A stretch of DNA of 64,000 nt from Archivesica marissinica (Eukaryota; Mollusca; Bivalvia; Venerida; Vesicomyidae): NCBI GenBank assembly GCA_014843695.1, contig CM026403.1, positions 49,748,296 to 49,812,295 of the forward strand. Direction: 5' to 3'. Each line of letters starts with the position of its first letter. Position 1 is the stretch's first letter. Below the pieces are notes generated by a model that worked only from the letters and a program-made list of their open reading frames with translations, had not been told where the DNA came from and searched no databases. Shown here in pieces: positions 13,459-64,000 of this stretch. The position numbers were made by a program, and so were the translations under genes.

Positions 13459-13536
13459 ATGTTGGTGAAGGAATATCGTATCTCGCTGCCCATGAGTGTG
13501 GAGGAATATCGGATAGCACAGTTATATATGATACAG
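13459..13536 (+). CDS. PITPNM: PITPNM exon 1 (residues 1-26), first coding exon
   Basis: Encodes MLVKEYRISLPMSVEEYR then IAQLYMIQ, the conserved N-terminal beta strand and first helix of a class II PITP domain. The exon ends CAG|GTAAAC in phase 0. The ATG at 13459 has A at -3. An in-frame ATG lies upstream at 13375 with no stop between, but family proteins begin at the MLxKEY motif and the later residue numbering supports 13459. Upstream 13310-13458 may hold 5' UTR or a promoter; none can be shown. The last 45 nt plus the donor are the founder of the 6-kb tandem array that follows immediately. The exon copy differs from nearly all array copies in reading gaatatcgg where they read gaatacc. Confidence 0.9.
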
Positions 13537-16500
13537 GTAAACTCCATGAGTGTTGAGGAATACCGAATAGCCCAGTTATATATGATACAGGTAAACTGCA
13601 TGAGTGTGAAGGAATACCGGATAGCACAGTTATATATGATACAGATAAACTCCATGAGTGTTGAGGAATACCGAATAGCCCAGTTATATAATTATGATAC
13701 AGGTAAACTGCATGAGTGTGGAGGAATACCGGATAGCACGGTTATATATGATACAGGTAAACTCCATGAGTGTTGAGGAATACCGAATAGCCCAGTTATA
13801 TATGATACAGGTAAACTGCATGAGTGTGGAGGAATACAGGATAGCATGGTTATATATGATACAGGTAAACTCCATGAGTGTTGAGGAATACCGAATAGCC
13901 CAGTTATATATGATACAGGTAAACTGCATGAGTGTGGAGGAATACCGGATAGCACAGTTATATATGATACAGGTAAACTCCATGAGTGTGGAGGAATACC
14001 GGATAGCATGGTTATATATGATACAGGTAAACTCCATGAGTGTGGAGGAATACCGGATAGCACAGTTATATATGATACAGGTAAACTGCATGAGTGTGGA
14101 GGAATACCGGATAGCACGGTTATATATGATACAGGTAAACTGCATGAGTGTGGAGGAATACCGAATAGCCCAGTTATATATGATACAGGTAAACTGCATG
14201 AGTGTGGAGGAATACCGGATAGCACAGTTATATATGATACAGGTAAACTGCATGAGTGTGGAGGAATACCGGATAGCACAGTTATATATGTGTGGAGGAA
14301 TACCGGATAGCCCAGTTATATATGATACAGGTAAACTGCATGAGTGTGGAGGAATACCGGATAGCATGGTTATATATGTGTGGAGGAATACCGGATAGCC
14401 CAGTTATATATGATACAGGTAAACTGCATGAGTGTGGAGGAATACCGGATAGCACAGTTATATATGTGTGGAGGAATACCGGATAGCCCAGTTATATATG
14501 ATACAGGTAAACTGCATGAGTGTGGAGGAATACCGGATAGCACAGTTATATATGTGTGGAGGAATACCGGATAGCCCAGTTATATATGATACAGGTAAAC
14601 TGCATGAGTGTGGAGGAATACCGGATAGCACAGTTATATATGTGTGGAGGAATACCGGATAGCACGGTTATATGTGATACAGGTAAACTGCATGAGTGTG
14701 GAGGAATACCGGATAGCACAGTTATATATGTGTGGAGGAATACCGGATAGCCCAGTTATATATGATACAGGTAAACTGCATGAGTGTGGAGGAATACCGG
14801 ATAGCATGGTTATATATGATACAGGTAAACTGCATGAGTGTGGAGGAATACCGGATAGCACGGTTATATATGATACAGGTAAACTGCATGAGTGTGGAGG
14901 AATACCGGATAGCACAGTTATATATGATACAGGTAAACTGCATGAGTGTGGAGGAATACCGGATAGCACGGTTATATATGATACAGGTAAACTGCATGAG
15001 TGTGGAGGAATACAGGATAGCACAGTTATATATGATACAGGTAAACTGCATGAGTGTGGAGGAATACCGGATAGCACAGTTATATATGATACAGGTAAAC
15101 TGCATGAGTGTGGAGGAATACAGGATAGCACAGTTATATATGATACAGGTAAACTGCATGAGTGTGGAGGAATACCGGATAGCACGGTTATATATGATAC
15201 AGGTAAACTGCATGAGTGTGGAGGAATACCGAATAGCCCAGTTATATAATTATGATACAGGTAAACTGCATGAGTGTGGAGGAATACCGGATAGCACGGT
15301 TATATATGATACAGGTAGACTGCATGAGTGTGGAGGAATACCGAATAGCACAGTTATATATGATACAGGTAAACTGCATGAGGTTGGAGGAATACCGGAT
15401 AGCACAGTTATATATGTGTGGAGGAATACCGGATAGCCCAGTTATATATGATACAGGTAAACTGCATGAGTGTGGAGGAATACCGGATAGCATGGTTATA
15501 TATGATACAGGTAAACTGCATGAGTGTGGAGGAATACCGGATAGCACAGTTATATATGTGTGGAGGAATACCGGATAGCACGGTTATATGTGATACAGGT
15601 AAACTGCATGAGTGTGGAGGAATACCGGATAGCACAGTTATATATGTGTGGAGGAATACCGGATAGCACGGTTATATATGATACAGGTAAACTGCATGAG
15701 TGTGGAGGAATACCGGATAGCACGGTTATATATGATACAGGTAAACTCCATGAGTGTGGAGGAATACCGGATAGCACAGTTATATATGATACAGGTAAAC
15801 TCCATGAGTGTGGAGGAATACCGGATAGCACGGTTATATTATTATATATGATACAGGTAAACTCCATGAGTGTGGAGGAATACCGGATAGCACAGTTATA
15901 TATGATACAGGTAAACTGCATGAGTGTGGAGGAATACCGGATAGCACAGTTATATATGATACAGGTAAACTCCATGAGTGTGGAGGAATACCGGATAGCA
16001 CAGTTATATATGATACAGGTAAACTGCATGAGTGTGGAGGAATACAGGATAGCACAGTTATATATGATACAGGTAAACTGCATGAGGTTGGAGAAATACC
16101 GGATAGCACGGTTATATATGATACAGGTAAACTGCATGAGTGTGGAGGAATACAGGATAGCACAGTTATATATGATACAGGTAAACTGCATGAGTGTGGA
16201 GGAATACCGGATAGCACAGTTATATATGATACAGGTAAACTGCATGAGGTTGGAGAAATACCGGATAACACGGTTATATGTGATACAGGTAAACTCCATG
16301 AGTGTGGAGGAATACCGGATAGCACGGTTATATTATTATATATGATACAGGTAAACTCCATGAGTGTGGAGGAATACCGAATAGCACGGTTATATATGAT
16401 ACAGGTAAACTCCATGAGTGTTGAGGAATACCGAATAGCACGGTTATATATGATACAGGTAAACTGCATGAGTGTGGAGAAATACCGGATAGCACGGTTA

Positions 16501-19500
16501 TATTATTATATATGATACAGGTAAACTCCATGAGTGTGGAGGAATACCGGATAGCACAGTTATATATGATACAGGTAAACTCCATGAGTGTGGAGGAATA
16601 CCGGATAGCACAGTTATATATGATACAGGTAAACTGCATGAGTGTGGAGGAATACCGGATAGCACGGTTATATATGATACAGGTAAACTCCATGAGTGTG
16701 GAGGAATACCGGATAGCACAGTTATATATGATACAGGTAAGCTCCATGAGTGTTGAGGAATACCGAATAGCCCAGTTATATATGATACAGGTAAACTGCA
16801 TGAGTGTGGAGGAATACAGGATAGCACAGTTATATATGATACAGGTAAACTGCATGAGGTTGGAGAAATACCGGATAGCACGGTTATATATGATACAGGT
16901 AAACTGCATGAGTGTGGAGGAATACCGGATAGCACAGTTATATATGATACAGGTAAACTGCATGAGTGTGGAGGAATACCGGATAGCATGGTTATATATG
17001 ATACAGGTAAACTCCATGAGTGTGGAGGAATACCGGATAGCACAGTTATATATGATACAGGTAAACTCCATGAGTGTGGAGGAATACCGGATAGCATGGT
17101 TATATATGATACAGGTAAACTCCATGAGTGTGGAGGAATACCGGATAGCATGGTTATATATGATACAGGTAAACTCCATGAGTGTGGAGGAATACCGGAT
17201 AGCATGGTTATATATGATACAGGTAAACTCCATGAGTGTGGAGGAATACCGGATAGCACAGTTATATATGATACAGGTAAACTGCATGAGGTTGGAGGAA
17301 TACAGGATAGCACGGTTATATATGATACAGGTAAACTGCATGAGTGTGGAGGAATACCGGATAGCACGGTTATATATGATACAGGTAAACTGCATGAGTG
17401 TGGAGGAATACAGGATAGCACAGTTATATATGATACAGGTAAACTGCATGAGTGTGGAGGAATACCGGATAGCACGGTTATATATGATACAGGTAAACTG
17501 CATGAGTGTGGAGGAATACAGGATAGCACAGTTATATATGATACAGGTAAACTGCATGAGTGTGGAGGAATACCGGATAGCACAGTTATATATGATACAG
17601 GTAAACTGCATGAGTGTGGAGGAATACCGGATAGCACAGTTATATATGATACAGGTAAACTGCATGAGTGTGGAGGAATACCGGATAGCACGGTTATATA
17701 TGATACAGGTAAACTCCATGAGTGTGGAGGAATACCGGATAGCACAGTTATATATGATACAGGTAAACTGCATGAGGTTGGAGAAATACCGGATAGCACA
17801 GTTATATATGATACAGATAAACTCCATGAGTGTTGAGGAATACCGAATAGCCCAGTTATATATGATACAGGTAAACTGCATGAGGTTGGAGGAATACAGG
17901 ATAGCATGGTTATATATGATACAGGTAAACTGCATGAGTGTGGAGGAATACAGGATAGCACAGTTATATATGATACAGGTAAACTGCATGAGTGTGGAGG
18001 AATACCGGATAGCACAGTTATATATGATACAGGTAAACTCCATGAGTGTGGAGGAATACCGGATAGCACGGTTATATATGATACAGGTAAACTGCATGAG
18101 TGTGGAGGAATACCGGATAGCACAGTTATATATGATACAGGTAAACTGCATGAGTGTGGAGGAATACCGGATAGCACAGTTATATATGATACAGGTAAAC
18201 TCCATGAGTGTGGAGGAATACCGGATAGCACAGTTATATATGATACAGGTAAACTGCATGAGTGTGGAGGAATACAGGATAGCACAGTTATATATGATAC
18301 AGGTAAACTGCATGAGGTTGGAGAAATACCGGATAGCACGGTTATATATGATACAGGTAAACTGCATGAGGTTGGAGAAATACCGGATAACACGGTTATA
18401 TGTGATACAGGTAAACTGCATGAGTGTGGAGGAATACCGGATAGCACAGTTATATATGATACAGGTAAACTGCATGAGTATGGAGGAATACCGGATAGCA
18501 CGGTTATATATGATACAGGTAAACTGCATGAGTGTGGAGGAATACCGGATAGCACAGTTATATATGATACAGGTAAACTGCATGAGTGTGGAGGAATACA
18601 GGATAGCACAGTTATATATGATACAGGTAAACTGCATGAGTGTGGAGGAATACAGGATAGCACAGTTATATATGATACAGGTAAACTGCATGAGTGTGGA
18701 GGAATACCGGATAGCACAGTTATATATGATACAGGTAAACTGCATGAGTGTGGAGGAATACCGAATAGCCCAGTTATATATGATACAGGTAAACTGCATG
18801 AGGTTGGAGAAATACAGGATAGCATGGTTATATGTGATACAGGTAAACTGCATGAGGTTGGAGAAATACAGGATAGCATGGTTATATATGATACAGGTAA
18901 ACTGCATGAGGTTGGAGAAATACAGGATAGCATGGTTATATATGATACAGGTAAACTGCATGAGGTTGGAGAAATACAGGATAGCATGGTTATATATGAT
19001 ACAGGTAAACTGCATGAGTGTGGAGGAATACAGGATAGCACAGTTATATATGATACAGGTAAACTGCATGAGGTTGGAGAAATACAGGATAGCATGGTTA
19101 TATATGATACAGGTAAACTCCATGAGTGTGGAGGAATACCGGATAGCACAGTTATATATGATACAGGTAAACTGCATGAGTGTGGAGGAATACCGGATAG
19201 CACAGTTATATATGATACAGGTAAACTGCATGAGTGTGGAGGAATACCGGATAGCACAGTTATATATGATACAGGTAAACTGCATGAGTGTGGAGGAATA
19301 CAGGATAGCATGGTTATATATGATACAGGTAAACTGCATGAGTGTGGAGGAATACAGGATAGCACAGTTATATATGATACAGGTAAACTGCATGAGTGTG
19401 GAGGAATACAGGATAGCACAGTTATATATGATACAGGTAAACTCCATGAGTGTGGAGGAATACCGGATAGCACAGTTATATATGATACAGGTAAGCTCCA

Positions 19501-19512
19501 TGAGTGTGGAGA
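13492..19512 (+). repeat. 54-bp minisatellite made of exon 1 end plus 5' splice site (about 110 copies)
   Basis: Each unit has 45 nt encoding MSVEEYRIAQLYMIQ followed by the intron start gtaaactgc or gtaaactcc, so the real exon 1 end (13492-13536) is unit 1. Most units keep CAG|GTAAAC; a few read ATAAAC (13645, 17816), and two including the last (16735, 19491) read GTAAGC. Shorter units lacking the donor occur at 14290-14750 and 15415-15660. Because 54 is a multiple of three, several frames stay open for up to about 1000 codons on both strands; two of the three + frames are open, so openness is not evidence of coding. Confidence 0.95.
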
Positions 19513-25934: not shown

Positions 25935-26067
25935 AGAAAGAGCCGGGAGGAGAGTCATGGGGCAGGGAGTGGTGTTGAAATCCTTGAAAACAAGCCATAT
26001 ACAGAGGGTCCCGGGGGTAATGGCCAGTACACATATAAAATATACCATATTGGCAGTCACCTACCAG
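25935..26067 (+). CDS. PITPNM: PITPNM exon 2 (residues 27-71)
   Basis: The acceptor is tatttacag|AGAAAG and the donor CCAG|GTAAAG. It enters in phase 0 and leaves in phase 1. It encodes RKSREESHGAGSGVEI, then the PITP segment NKPYTEGPGGNGQYTYKIYH and the ending GSHLPG. T59 and K61 (in QYTYK) correspond to the PI head-group contacts of class I PITPs. It lies 12.4 kb downstream of exon 1, after three large arrays. Confidence 0.93.
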
Positions 26068-28628: not shown

Positions 28629-28832
28629 GATGGTTCCGTGCTATATTGCCCAAATCAGCATTGCGTGTGGAGGAGGAGGCCTGGAATGCATACCCATACA
28701 CCAAAACACGCTACCGCTGCCCCTTCGTGGAGAAATTTGTGCTCGAGGTTGAAACAAGATACTTAAACGATGGCGGGGAATTAGAGAACATATTTGGTCT
28801 GTCATCCTCGGAAATGAAAGACAGAACATTAG
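28629..28832 (+). CDS. PITPNM: PITPNM exon 3 (residues 71-139)
   Basis: The acceptor is ggttacag|GATGG and the donor TTAG|GTAAGA; phase 1 in and out. It encodes WFRAILPKSALRVEEEAWNA, then YPYTKTRYRCPFVEKFVLEV and a segment ending at the EMKDRTL motif. N90 (in WNAYPYTKTRY) matches the lipid-contact Asn of class I PITPs. This is the best conserved part of the PITP fold. A 41-bp direct repeat (28440-28575) lies just before the acceptor. Confidence 0.94.
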
Positions 28833-33895: not shown

Positions 33896-34138
33896 ATTTC
33901 ATAGATATCGTAAAGGATACCATATCAAGTAGTGACTACAGGAGAGAGGAAGATCCAAAGATATTTCAGTCGAAAACTACGAAACGTGGCCCGCTGAACG
34001 ACAACTGGCGGGTGGAGTATAACAAAGCAAGTAAAACGGATGCAAACAAAAATATCATGACGGCGTACAAACTGTGCAGGGTGGAGTTTAAATACTGGGG
34101 CATGCAGACAAAGATCGAGAGATTTATACATGATATAG
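33896..34138 (+). CDS. PITPNM: PITPNM exon 4 (residues 139-220)
   Basis: The acceptor is gtgtttcag|ATTTC and the donor GATATAG|GTAACG; phase 1 in and out. It encodes DFIDIVKDTISSSDYRREED, the GPLNDNW loop, and AYKLCRVEFKYWGMQTKIER followed by FIHDIG. The YKLCRVEFKYWGMQ block is a PITP family signature. The 17 nt spanning its donor are the core of the 28-bp array at 35155-35965 in the following intron. Confidence 0.94.
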
Positions 34139-35155: not shown

Positions 35156-35965
35156 AGCATGATTTAGGTAACGTATTTTGATATATATGATATAGGTAAC
35201 GTATTGTGATATATATGATATAGGTAACGTATTTTTATATATATGATATAGGTAACGTATTGTGATATATGATATAGGTAACGTATTGTGATATATGATA
35301 TAGGTAACGTATTGTGATATATGATATAGGTAACGTATTGTGATATATATGATATAGGTAACGTATTGTGATATATATGATATAGGTAACGTATTGTGAT
35401 ATATATGATATAGGTAACATATTTTTATATATATGATATAGGTAACGTATTTATATATATATATGATATTGGTAACGTATTTTTATATGTATGATATAGG
35501 TAACGTATTGTGATATATATGATATAGGTAACGTATTGTGATATATATGATATAGGTAACGTATTGTGATATATATGATATAGGTAACGTATTTTTATAT
35601 ATATGATATAGGTAACGTATTGTAATATATATGATATAGGTAACGTATTGTGATATATATGATATAGGTAACGTATTGTGATATATATGATATAGGTAAC
35701 GTATTTATATATATATATGATATAGGTAACGTATTTTTATATGTATGATATAGGTAACGTATTGTGATATATATGATATAGGTAACGTATTGTGATATAT
35801 ATGATATAGGTAACGTATTGTGATATATGATATAGGTAACGTATTTTTATATATATGATATAGGTAATGTATTGTGATATATATGATATAGGTAACGTAT
35901 TGTGATATATATGATATAGGTAACGTATTGTGATATATATGCTATAGGTAACGTATTTATGACAT
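35155..35965 (+). repeat. 28-bp array derived from exon 4 donor (about 29 copies)
   Basis: The unit is atatatgatatag|gtaacgtattgtg. Seventeen nt (atgatataggtaacgta) are identical to the exon 4 end and donor at 34130-34146. Degenerate copies at about 34408-34432 and 34858-34925, between transposon insertions, suggest the array once began at exon 4 and was split by a SINE, a MITE and another SINE. It runs to within 20-40 nt of the exon 5 acceptor. Confidence 0.9.
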
Positions 35966-35983: not shown

Positions 35984-36376
35984 GTCTACGTAAGACGATG
36001 CTGCGGGCACACAGACAGGCTTGGTGCTGGCAGGATGAATATCATGGATTAGAATTGTCAGATATACGTAAACTTGAGTATGAAACTCAGCTTGCATTGA
36101 AAGAAACAATGGCTGCTGTCAGTGAAAATGAAGACTTTGTGCAAGATAACGAAACTTCGGAATCAACGAATAAGAAAATGGATACAAATGAAAACATAAA
36201 TTCTGCTAGAAATGGTTCCAAGGATAAAGATAGTTCAAAGCTGCCAGTGTCAAAGTCTATGGATCATGTATTACGACATGGACATCAGAGATCTGGGAGT
36301 CCGTCACTGTCGGTGTCTTCTAAACATTCCGTGAAGTCAAGAACGATGAAGCTGTCAAAATCGAAATCATCCATAG
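35984..36376 (+). CDS. PITPNM: PITPNM exon 5 (residues 220-351): end of PITP domain and Ser/Lys-rich linker
   Basis: The acceptor is gttaaag|GTCTACG, with an unusually poor polypyrimidine tract because the 28-bp array runs up to it. The donor is CCATAG|GTAGTA. It begins LRKTMLRAHRQAWCWQDEY, the conserved C-terminal PITP helix, then an acidic/amidated segment and a Ser/Lys-rich tail (SGSPSLSVSSKHSVKSRTMK). The tail is low complexity and probably disordered, as in other RdgB/Nir proteins. Confidence 0.93.
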
Positions 36377-36449: not shown

Positions 36450-36937
36450 TGTAGATTCAAGTCAGTTTGAGGTTTCTTTAATTTATACATTGATCATTTT
36501 GATGTCTTTTTGTCGGACCACATATTGGTTCTACTTGATTCAAGTAATAGAGTTTTCTTCTATTTATAGATTCAAGTCATGTGTCAGTTTGGAGTTTTCC
36601 TCTATATTTACATTCAAGTCATGTGTCAGCTTGGAGTTTTCTTCTATTTATAGATTCAAGTCATGTGTCCGATTCGAGTTTTCCTCCATATATACATACA
36701 AGTCATGCATCAGCTTGGAGTTTTCTTCTATTTATAGACTAAGTCATGTATCAGAATGGAGTTTTATTCTATTTATAGATTCAAGTTGTGTGTCAAATTA
36801 TAATTTCTTCTATTTATATGATGTATCAAGATTGGAGATGTTTTCTATTAATAGTCATGTGTCAGATTGAGGATTTGGATTTCGTCTATATTTGTATTCA
36901 AGTCAGGTGTCTATTTGGATATGTCTTCTATTTATAG
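36450..36937 (+). repeat. 42-bp degenerate array derived from exon 6 acceptor (about 10 copies)
   Basis: Units carry the pyrimidine-rich ttcttctatttatag followed by attcaagtcatgtgtcag and ttggagtt. This matches the real acceptor and first 30 nt of exon 6 (36923-36967). Several upstream copies keep a usable AG, so the true acceptor is the last of a row of look-alikes. Confidence 0.88.
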
Positions 36938-37027
36938 ATTCAAGTCCTGTGTCAGATTGGAGATTTCAGAGTTTAGAACAACTGCAGGAGTCGAGCTCAG
37001 ATGAAGATGATTTCTTTGATGCACAAG
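36938..37027 (+). CDS. PITPNM: PITPNM exon 6 (residues 351-381): FFAT-like acidic motif
   Basis: The acceptor is tctatttatag|ATTCAAG and the donor CACAAG|GTATTA; phase 1 in and out. It encodes DSSPVSDWRFQSLEQLQESS, then SDEDDFFDAQ. The last part matches the acidic tract plus core of an FFAT motif (consensus EFFDAxE), which in RdgB/Nir proteins binds VAP at the ER. Here the core reads D-F-F-D-A-Q-G, with Asp for the first Glu and Gly at position 7 where the codon joins exon 7. The acceptor and first 20-30 nt are founder of the 42-bp repeats just upstream. Confidence 0.88.
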
Positions 37028-56220: not shown

Positions 56221-56401
56221 GAAGTTTACTAGATACGGCGTATGATCATTTCAACACGTCCAAGCGTAGCGACTATAATACTCTCAAGACCACCTTTGAC
56301 TCGGTGATCAAGTCGAGTTACCCCGCTGTTAAAGGTCACGTGGCCCTGCGGCTGGTTCCATGCCCGCAGATCTGTTCAGAAGCTCTCAGCGTTCTCTCTA
56401 G
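56221..56401 (+). CDS. PITPNM: PITPNM exon 10 (residues 479-539), GC donor
   Basis: The acceptor is gtgttatttcag|GAAGTT. It encodes SLLDTAYDHFNTSKRSDYNT, then a helix and the signature KGHVALRLVPCPQICSEAL. It ends in TCTCTAG|GCAAGT, a non-canonical GC donor with an otherwise perfect consensus. The GC site gives the phase-2 junction needed to read exon 11 as SLSPFGF; the nearby GT (gtcatg) gives the wrong frame. Confidence 0.93.
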
Positions 56402-61494: not shown

Positions 61495-61705
61495 CCTCAG
61501 TCCATTTGGCTTTGATGTGATGACTCCAAGCTCTGGCGAGGGTGCTCTCCCCTGGAGCCAGGAGTTTGTTCCCCTGGGTGCGGTGAGTCTGTTCTCCGTG
61601 TGCAGCCCGGACTACCAGGATCATGTGAACTCTATCATTGCCAAGGCCAACATAGTCTTCATCGATTTCCTGCAGTCAGATGAGGGGAAAGGCTTTAATG
61701 GTCAG
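61495..61705 (+). CDS. PITPNM: PITPNM exon 11 (residues 539-609)
   Basis: The acceptor is catatttacag|CCTCAG and the donor GGTCAG|GTATGC; enters in phase 2, leaves in phase 0. It encodes LSPFGFDVMTPSSGEGALPW, then a segment with VPLGAVSLFSVCSPDYQDHV and the ending FIDFLQSDEGKGFNGQ. This matches the Nir/RdgB central region (RSPEGAGFCGQV in vertebrates). A second AG six nt into the exon could give a two-residue-shorter isoform. A MITE begins within the donor flank (about 61709). Confidence 0.93.
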
Positions 61706-63145: not shown

Positions 63146-63761
63146 GTGTGTATACTAGCTGATGCTACTGGTTCTGTGCTCACATACGATGCCTTATGCC
63201 GGTCAAGGAATGCCTTCAGTCGTGGCAGCAGTCACCACGACAGCCGCTCCAGTGACCTCAATGAGGATCCTGAGCCGCCTTCAGCCATGGGCAGTACTCA
63301 CACCCTGTGTGATAACGTTCACGATACAATTCAGGAACATTCAGCCATCCCGAAGCCAAATTCTCCGTTAATACTCGAAATTCCAAAAAATGAAAGTGTT
63401 CATTCGGAATCCAAAGTTGATACAATTGGGGACAGTGCTAGTGGTAGTGGTGATAAAGAAGACAAATGTGGCAAGCAGTTTGTATGCAGTGAGCATGAGA
63501 CAGTCAAGCACGTGCACGAGATCTCCAAGCCACCCGTCAGCAAAACAGACAGTGTGCCAGTAGAGCTGCGTCAGAACAGCGTGCGATTACAGGTGACTCA
63601 TTCTGAGGATGCAACGAGCGAGTCCGGGCGCAGGACTAGCGGGGGGAGTCAGTACGAGTCACTTAAATTTGAGTTTGAGGTTGCAGATTTTTTCATGCTT
63701 GGTTCACCACTAGGTTTGGTACTCGCATACAGGAAAATGTTTGCTGGGGATAATAAACCGG
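63146..63761 (+). CDS. PITPNM: PITPNM exon 12 (residues 610-815): to start of DDHD domain
   Basis: The acceptor is attgtatttcag|GTGTGT and the donor CCGG|GTCAGT (phase 1). It begins VCILADATGSVLTYDALCRS, equivalent to the lipase-like strand-turn-helix of Nir proteins. The nucleophile-elbow position shows no Ser, as in other members. A long Ser/Glu-rich insert of about 130 residues follows, then FEVADFFMLGSPLGLVLAYRK, the first strand of the DDHD domain. The next exon, expected to encode a QVYNLFHP-like segment, is not in the window. Confidence 0.93.
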
Positions 63762-63892
63762 GTCAGTCTAATATTTTTATCATTGATCTATTTATTTATT
63801 ATTTGTTTGTTTGTATTTGTGTGGATTTCTCCCGTAGTAATCTGTGTATATATAGTGTACATATAGAGAATATTAGAGTTCTGTTGGAGAAA

Positions 63893-64000
63893 TATACAAG
63901 GTGAGGCTCTACCAATATACAAGGTGAGGCTCTACCAATATACAAGGTGAGGCTCTACCAATATACAAGGTGAGGCTTTACCAATATACAAGGTGAGGTT
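63893..64000. repeat. 23-bp array with donor-like motif, cut by window end
   Basis: The unit is aatatacaaggtgaggctct plus acc. Every unit carries AAG|GTGAGG, a good 5' splice consensus. At least 5 copies in intron 12. Confidence 0.88.

What the first reader, a model, noticed from the sequence alone, without database searches (positions are those of the whole stretch)
13492..19512. A coding exon end and its 5' splice site amplified about 110-fold
The unit is 45 nt of PITPNM exon 1 (MSVEEYRIAQLYMIQ) plus 9 nt of intron. The first unit is the functional exon boundary itself. The spliceosome thus meets one real donor followed by roughly a hundred near-identical ones, most with CAG|GTAAAC. I know of no described case of a minisatellite whose repeat unit is a host gene's own exon end plus donor at this scale.
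Basis: partly seen in the sequence, partly recalled or inferred. Interest (0 to 1): 0.92.

Follow-up and report, generated by a model that had tools for sequence, protein, structure and literature searches.

The report
Splice junction copied a hundred times
In this animal genome the end of a lipid-transfer gene's first exon, with its splice signal, has been copied about a hundred times into the next intron; it is one of over a dozen such junction-spanning repeats found here, a kind already known from lancelets and one human gene but not seen at this size in the papers searched.

Summary
Window 13491-19511 is a 54-nt tandem array of about 110 units. Each full unit is the last 45 nt of PITPNM/rdgB coding exon 1 (MSVEEYRIAQLYMIQ) plus 9 nt of intron. 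It carries 103 GT donors, 100 of them CAG|GTAAAC; only the first two keep the reading frame. A genome search reported the unit at no other place.

The "no described case" claim fails: the human CBS 31-bp VNTR is exon end plus donor (16-21 copies), and lancelet "mirages" are minisatellites spanning exon-intron boundaries.

The larger finding is that this array is not unique. In the same gene 6 of 32 inspected junctions lie strictly inside a TRF array, and two more look like array seeds. One 3'-splice-site array has about 135 copies; another has 15 extra acceptors, all in frame. Outside PITPNM, 8 of at most 168 sampled junctions are spanned. About 46% of a 264-kb neighbourhood is minisatellite.

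Best explanation: very active minisatellite birth. An array that includes a junction is tolerated because the outermost, exon-attached copy still works. Whether junctions are preferred birth sites is supported in PITPNM and undecided elsewhere. Which donor is used needs RNA.

The parts
13459..13536 (+). PITPNM/rdgB coding exon 1 (MLVKEYRISLPMSVEEYRIAQLYMIQ); phase-0 donor follows
13537..13545 (+). first (presumed functional) donor and the 9 intron nt of unit 1, GTAAACTCC
13491..19511 (+). 54-nt minisatellite, about 110 copies: 45 nt exon-1 end + 9 nt intron; 103 GT donors
19485..19499 (+). last full unit's donor region, CAG|GTAAGC (G at +5, unlike the first donor)
25935..26067 (+). PITPNM exon 2 (RKSREES...HLPG)
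28629..28832 (+). PITPNM exon 3
33896..34138 (+). PITPNM exon 4, end CATGATATAG|GTAACG
35159..35957 (+). 28-nt x 28.7 array carrying the exon-4 end and donor (exon-4 junction matches the unit 25 of 28; next best place in the window outside the array 19 of 28); lies 1 kb downstream in the same intron
35984..36376 (+). PITPNM exon 5
36550..36967 (+). 42-nt x 10.2 array (69% matches) carrying the 3' splice site and start of exon 6; the last unit is the exon-attached one
36938..37027 (+). PITPNM exon 6
56221..56401 (+). PITPNM exon (no spanning array)
61495..61705 (+). PITPNM exon (no spanning array)
63146..63761 (+). PITPNM DDHD-region exon (no spanning array)

Best explanation
The array is a splice-junction-spanning minisatellite (a 'mirage'). 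An initial tandem duplication took in the last 45 nt of exon 1 and the first 9 nt of intron 1. Repeated unequal exchange or slippage then grew it to about 110 copies, with homogenisation and internal higher-order repeats. It persists because the first copy, attached to the rest of exon 1, is a complete exon end with its donor: if that donor is used, the other copies are only intron. The same process, acting in a genome that is unusually rich in minisatellites where I looked, produced the other junction-spanning arrays. In 5' arrays the first copy is the exon-attached one and in 3' arrays the last. Shown here: the anatomy, the gene, the other arrays and the frame consequences. Inferred: the birth and growth mechanism, use of the first donor, and neutrality.
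For: Unit = exon end + donor, contiguous with the intact exon. Only 2 of 103 donors give an intact PITP frame, and relatives show no insertion at this point. No other place in the genome was reported for the unit, so it is not an evident dispersed satellite or transposon. Minisatellites cover 45.7% of 264 kb around it (89 arrays; largest 654 copies of 40 nt). Six of 32 inspected PITPNM junctions lie inside TRF arrays, plus exon 11's 3' splice site at an array edge and exon 4's donor sequence in a nearby array. Spanning arrays also occur in TCP1, kinesin and PITP-paralogue exons on seven contigs. Splice-site positions in the units show no consistent extra conservation or decay: substitutions at the core are below the unit mean in 4 of 9 arrays, about equal in 2, above it in 3. 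In lancelets, Adh3 data and globin RT-PCR suggested that such arrays do not disturb normal splicing (PMC3087553).
Against: No RNA was available. The last unit's donor (GTAAGC) fits U1 better than the first (GTAAAC), and known competition rules (recalled, not looked up) often favour the intron-proximal of equal donors, so first-donor use is not self-evident. In the exon-1 array the donor core does change less than the unit mean (7 of 975 cells against 3.3%), though 12 of 54 windows change still less. Junction-spanning arrays in PITPNM are more frequent than random seeding predicts, which plain neutrality at random sites does not explain.
Confidence: 0.85

Rival explanations
1. Splice junctions are preferred birth sites of minisatellites in this genome (for example through transcription- or splicing-linked breakage), rather than random seeds that happen to be tolerated.
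For: PITPNM: 6 of 32 junctions strictly spanned. In 20,000 random placements of the 40 seed units in the gene, 5 were reached once and 6 never. Leaving out the exon-1 junction that drew attention, 5 of 31 gives Poisson P 5e-4, and 7 of 31 (adding exons 4 and 11) gives 5e-6. Outside: 8 of at most 168 junctions against 2.4-2.9 expected, P 0.003-0.011.
Against: The null counts nested and merged arrays once. With twice the birth rate the outside sample gives P 0.11-0.24, and 0.20-0.38 if L059 (2 exon nt) is dropped. The PITPNM gene was picked because it looked striking. The kinesin sample alone gives 2 of at most 80.
Confidence: 0.3
2. The extra splice sites are used: the arrays act as tunable donor or acceptor sets giving length isoforms, or as a platform of U1 sites in a long first intron.
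For: Donor 2 of the exon-1 array adds 18 residues in frame. All 15 inner acceptors found in the exon-14 array are in frame and open (17 residues each). 100 of 103 donors keep CAGGTAAAC, and the exon-1 and exon-4 donor cores change less than their unit means.
Against: 101 of 103 exon-1 donors destroy the frame. Exon-13 inner donors meet a stop at once, and both inner acceptors of exon 15 and all 71 inner acceptors found for exon 16 give frameshift or stop. No consistent conservation of splice positions over the nine arrays.
Confidence: 0.08
3. The array is coding: it is retained and translated as an 18-residue repeat.
For: 54 nt is 18 codons, and long stretches read MSVEEYRIAQLYMIQVN[C/S] without stop.
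Against: From the exon-1 start the frame is lost early (donors 3-12 are all out of frame) by units whose length is not a multiple of 3. The protein search with 360 residues of array gave no match, though repetitive queries are poorly served.
Confidence: 0.03
4. Transcription starts inside the array and the last unit, with its better donor, serves as first exon (MSVEEYRIAQLYMIQ|RKSREES).
For: Full units begin with an ATG in the frame of MSVEEYRIAQLYMIQ; the last donor is GTAAGC; one relative's predicted protein begins at the same Met (P0001; it may be a fragment).
Against: It would drop the 11 residues before MSVEE, present in 8 of 10 aligned relatives.
Confidence: 0.04
5. Assembly artefact: the copy number, or the array, is a misassembly.
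For: Long arrays are hard to assemble; no reads could be inspected.
Against: 22 distinct sequences among the 78 clean 54-nt units split (a subset), an 88-nt higher-order pattern, and similar arrays in many places.
Confidence: 0.04

Closest known systems
Lancelet 'mirages' (Adh3, troponin C, globins BflGb6 and BflGb9, PGBD5)
   Same: Minisatellite-like tandem duplications of exon-intron boundaries, 5' and 3', unit 10-160 bp, many units with AG/GT signals, several genes of one genome (PMC3087553 and PMC3902484, passages).
   Different: Here a non-chordate animal by its nearest proteins, about 110 and 135 copies against a handful in the globin passages read, and at least six spanned junctions in one gene. 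RNA not tested here.
Human CBS 31-bp VNTR
   Same: Unit = 24 nt exon end + 7 nt intron by its numbering; tandem, 16-21 copies (PMC2630376, passages).
   Different: Fewer copies; one array in the passages read; sequence relation not tested.
[quoted passage not shown] potato RdRp, fission yeast 24-bp case)
   Same: Tandem duplication that copies splice signals (PMC4974935, passages).
   Different: There the duplication makes a new intron; here an old junction is multiplied into an existing intron.
Earthworm metallothionein intron-1 minisatellites
   Same: Long minisatellites in a first intron of an annelid gene (PMC12783039, passages).
   Different: The passages read do not describe units that include an exon end.

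Membership tests
Mirage (splice-junction-spanning minisatellite) | Tandem repeat unit spans an exon-intron boundary | tested here: met
   45 nt exon + 9 nt intron, contiguous with the exon
Mirage (splice-junction-spanning minisatellite) | Minisatellite unit length (10-160 bp in lancelet) | tested here: met
   54 nt; other junction arrays 26-117 nt
Mirage (splice-junction-spanning minisatellite) | Many units keep splice signals | tested here: met
   103 GT donors, 2 AT
Mirage (splice-junction-spanning minisatellite) | Normal mRNA splicing despite the array | not testable with these tools
   No RNA; frame argument only
Mirage (splice-junction-spanning minisatellite) | Copy-number polymorphism between alleles | not tested
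   One assembly; no reads
Mirage (splice-junction-spanning minisatellite) | Occurs at several genes of the same genome, 5' and 3' boundaries | tested here: met
   PITPNM plus TCP1, kinesin and PITP-paralogue exons
Dispersed satellite or transposon-borne repeat | Same unit at other genomic places | tested here: not met
   All 59 reported matches lie in the one array (very common words are skipped by the tool)
Coding VNTR | Array translated in the gene's frame | tested here: not met
   Protein frame lost after donor 2
PITPNM/rdgB (class II PITP) gene | PITP domain plus DDHD and C-terminal (LNS2-type, name recalled) exons in order on one strand | tested here: met
   Pfam exon hits, PITP domain, tblastn with full-length relatives

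The most novel reading that the evidence does not exclude
In this genome splice junctions are a favoured birthplace of minisatellites. Several percent of all junctions have been multiplied, up to 135-fold, so that the spliceosome routinely meets tens to a hundred near-identical sites and must choose by position alone. Some arrays (exon 14 of PITPNM, 16 acceptors, all in frame) would then act as length dials for the protein.
Probability: 0.25. Interest if true: 0.82.

Novelty: new member of a known kind. Interest (0 to 1): 0.58.

Why it matters
It is a natural experiment in splice-site choice: one exon followed by over a hundred donors of nearly equal sequence, of which only the first two keep the protein. 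RNA from this animal would show directly whether position, order of transcription or exon definition decides. It also shows how tandem repeats can start in coding sequence and fill introns without breaking genes, and it extends a lancelet oddity to another animal group. The arrays offer raw material for the duplication model of intron and exon gain.

Tried and rejected
Coding array: rejected because the protein frame is lost after donor 2. Dispersed satellite or mobile element: not supported. Pseudogene: rejected because exons 1-5 join in frame and later exons match full-length relatives in order. Selection keeping or removing the extra splice sites: mixed result in nine arrays. A first count that scored gaps as changes put the exon-1 core at rank 29 of 54; counting substitutions only it lies below the unit mean for exons 1, 4, 11 and 14, near it for 13 and 6, above it for 15, 16 and the sister of 16 (alignments of the 47/48-nt arrays are rough). 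Array at 63891 (AAG|GTGAGG) as a junction array: not supported, since the DDHD-region exon ends near 63761 and no exon was found there. Arrays that, read by eye, start about 3-18 nt after a donor (L043, L054, L078, L082, L097) were not counted as spanning. Protein search with the array peptide: none at E 0.001 among 7990 scored candidates, uninformative. tRNA scan of the window: none. Naming the species by COX1: eleven requests did not complete; one search gave one match, on contig 18 itself, and no protein search was left to use it. PF02862, PF08235, PF00063 and PF00176 searches did not complete. One literature search gave nothing; the listings held nothing I judged relevant.
Full report
WHAT IS THERE. 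The window is a 64-kb piece of an animal chromosome (G000 contig 18, 1.54-Gb assembly). At 13459 an open reading frame begins MLVKEYRISLPMSVEEYRIAQLYMIQ and ends in CAG|GTAAAC. From 13491 to 19511 the last 45 nt of this exon and the first 9 nt of intron are repeated about 110 times (TRF: 110.2 copies, 87% matches). A pattern count gives 105 unit starts with 104 spacings: 89 of 54 nt, 9 of 88 nt (a 54-nt plus a truncated 34-nt unit without a donor), and 6 others. 103 units have a GT donor: 100 CAGGTAAAC, 2 CAGGTAAGC, 1 CAGGTAGAC; two more have AT. Unit 1 differs from the consensus at 2 of 54 positions.

THE GENE. Exon 1 joins in phase 0 to exon 2 at 25935 (MIQ|RKSREES). Exons 1-5 give an intact PITP domain that matches solved PITP alpha and beta at E 4e-64 to 4e-62. 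The two best named relatives in one protein search are molluscs (Solemya, 78% over 69% of the query; Babylonia); in the search for longer proteins a brachiopod and an annelid come first. The host is probably a lophotrochozoan, perhaps a mollusc; it could not be named. Of ten aligned relatives, eight carry the whole exon-1 stretch, P0001 starts at MSVEE and P0026 has a divergent start; all ten continue with KKSR and no insertion. tblastn with full-length Lingula and Capitella proteins places exons to about 95 kb in window coordinates, beyond the window, using fetched flanks. Exon numbers below count the 17 exons found; stretches of the protein without a match may hide more.

THE SPLICING PROBLEM. 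Joining each of the 103 donors in turn to exons 2-5 shows that only donors 1 and 2 give an intact frame. Donor 2 adds 18 residues. Of the rest, 94 shift the frame and 7 keep length but not the protein. So if the gene is functional, the first donor (or sometimes the second) must be used, although nearly all have the same sequence and the last (GTAAGC) is, by base pairing to U1 (recalled), somewhat better. For a first exon, favouring of the cap-proximal donor is a plausible reason (recalled; inference).

IT IS NOT ALONE. In a contiguous 264 kb, 89 minisatellites (period at least 10, at least 2.8 copies) cover 45.7% (44.5% of the window). In PITPNM, 32 junctions were checked. Six lie strictly inside a TRF array: exon 1 donor (54 nt x 110), exon 13 donor (59 nt x 24.6), and the acceptors of exon 6 (42 nt x 10), exon 14 (51 nt x 16), exon 15 (117 nt x 3.3) and exon 16 (47 nt x 135). 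Two more are close: the exon-11 acceptor sits at the edge of an array whose units repeat its TTGCAG|TGAGCAGTCG, and the 28-nt array at 35159-35957 carries the exon-4 end and donor (25 of 28; next best place in the window outside the array 19 of 28). Positions beyond 64000 are C18 coordinates minus 49748295. Some of the 32 junction assignments are less certain (for example the exon-15 donor, which I placed at GA, and the exon-7 donor, GC).

OTHER GENES. I sampled exons by family search, in order of E-value and without looking at repeats: 37 of 57 TCP1 matches, all 7 PITP matches outside contig 18, and 40 of 125 kinesin matches. That is 84 exon matches in 80 loci. Of the first 41 TCP1 rows five were skipped (two long single-frame matches, three near-duplicates) and one lower row came along in a locus; of the first 41 kinesin rows one small-contig duplicate was skipped. 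Near-duplicate loci remain (L036/L037, L093/L094). By TRF plus reading by eye, spanning arrays are L034, L053, L056, L059 (only 2 nt of exon), L060, L066, L081 and L099 (seen by alignment): 8 of at most 168 junctions; by sample 1 of at most 44, 5 of at most 44 and 2 of at most 80.

IS THE JUNCTION PREFERRED? If arrays were seeded at random, the chance that a given junction lies in a seed unit is the summed unit length over total length: 1.4% (264 kb), 1.75% (window), 2.1% (PITPNM). PITPNM without the exon-1 junction: 5 of 31, P 5e-4; twice the birth rate, P 0.01. Outside: 8 of 168, P 0.003-0.011; twice the birth rate, 0.11-0.24. Because nearly half the sequence is array, births are undercounted, so the outside sample does not settle it; and this gene was chosen for being striking. 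I treat preference as open.

HOW IT LIKELY WORKS. A short tandem duplication that includes a junction leaves one complete, exon-attached junction at the outer edge. Growth by unequal exchange then adds only intron. Substitutions at the splice core are below the unit mean in 4 of 9 arrays (exons 1, 4, 11, 14), about equal in 2 and above it in 3; in the exon-1 array 12 of 54 windows change less than the donor core. This fits copies that mostly do not matter, without proving it. Inner copies are usually harmful if used: exon-13 inner donors meet a stop at once; of the inner acceptors that my patterns found, 4 of 4 at exon 6, 2 of 2 at exon 15 and 71 of 71 at exon 16 give stop or frameshift (for exon 16 the pattern found about half of the copies). 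The exceptions are exon 14, where 15 of 15 are open and in frame, and exon 11, where 6 of 13 are. The exon-1 unit was reported at this one place in the genome (59 of 59 matches).

WHAT IS KNOWN. Human CBS has a 31-bp VNTR numbered c.1444_1467+7(16_21), that is 24 nt of exon end plus 7 nt of intron (PMC2630376, passages; the original 2001 report was seen only in its reference list). Lancelet globin, Adh3, troponin C and PGBD5 genes have "mirages" at 5' and 3' boundaries, which by RT-PCR and Adh3 data do not seem to disturb splicing (PMC3087553, abstract and passages; PMC3902484, one passage). Tandem duplication is also a model of intron gain (PMC4974935, passages). My searches listed no junction array of about a hundred copies; only titles, abstracts' beginnings and the passages named here were seen, and subscription papers are mostly not covered.

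VERDICT. The unsolved and testable points are which site is used and whether junctions are hotspots.

Noticed in passing
C18:49832147-49832979 (window scale 83852-84684): 51-nt x 16 array of the exon-14 acceptor and exon start; all 15 inner acceptors found are in frame and open, so up to 15 x 17 extra residues are possible.
   Followed up: partly
C18:49835704-49842078 and 49827436-49829757 (window scale 87409-93783 and 79141-81462): 47-nt array of the exon-16 acceptor, 135 copies, and a sister array of nearly the same unit (49 copies) in an upstream intron: an exon-derived repeat that seems to have moved within the gene.
   Followed up: partly
C18:49649259-49674963: A single 25.7-kb minisatellite, 40 nt x 654 copies.
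   Followed up: no
C6:90884374-90885115: About six kinesin-motor exon pieces (family positions near 64-120) in tandem at about 113-nt steps: probably another exon-boundary array; not fetched.
   Followed up: no
window 63891-64000 and on to 64814: 23-nt x 40 array with a donor-like AAG|GTGAGG in its units that does not correspond to any exon found.
   Followed up: partly
L043, L054, L082: Arrays that begin about 3-9 nt after a donor without including it, read by eye; array starts may crowd near donors.
   Followed up: no
C2063:10601-10810 and C17:78358767-78358976: Kinesin exons with the same scores on a small contig and a chromosome, perhaps an unpurged second haplotype that would allow allele-length comparison of arrays.
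   Followed up: no
C18:57969556-57970428 (L109): The only COX1 match reported in the assembly lies on the window's own chromosome, in a 644-residue open frame with 4 TGA (mitochondrial-type code): probably mitochondrial DNA inserted in, or assembled into, the nuclear contig.
   Followed up: no
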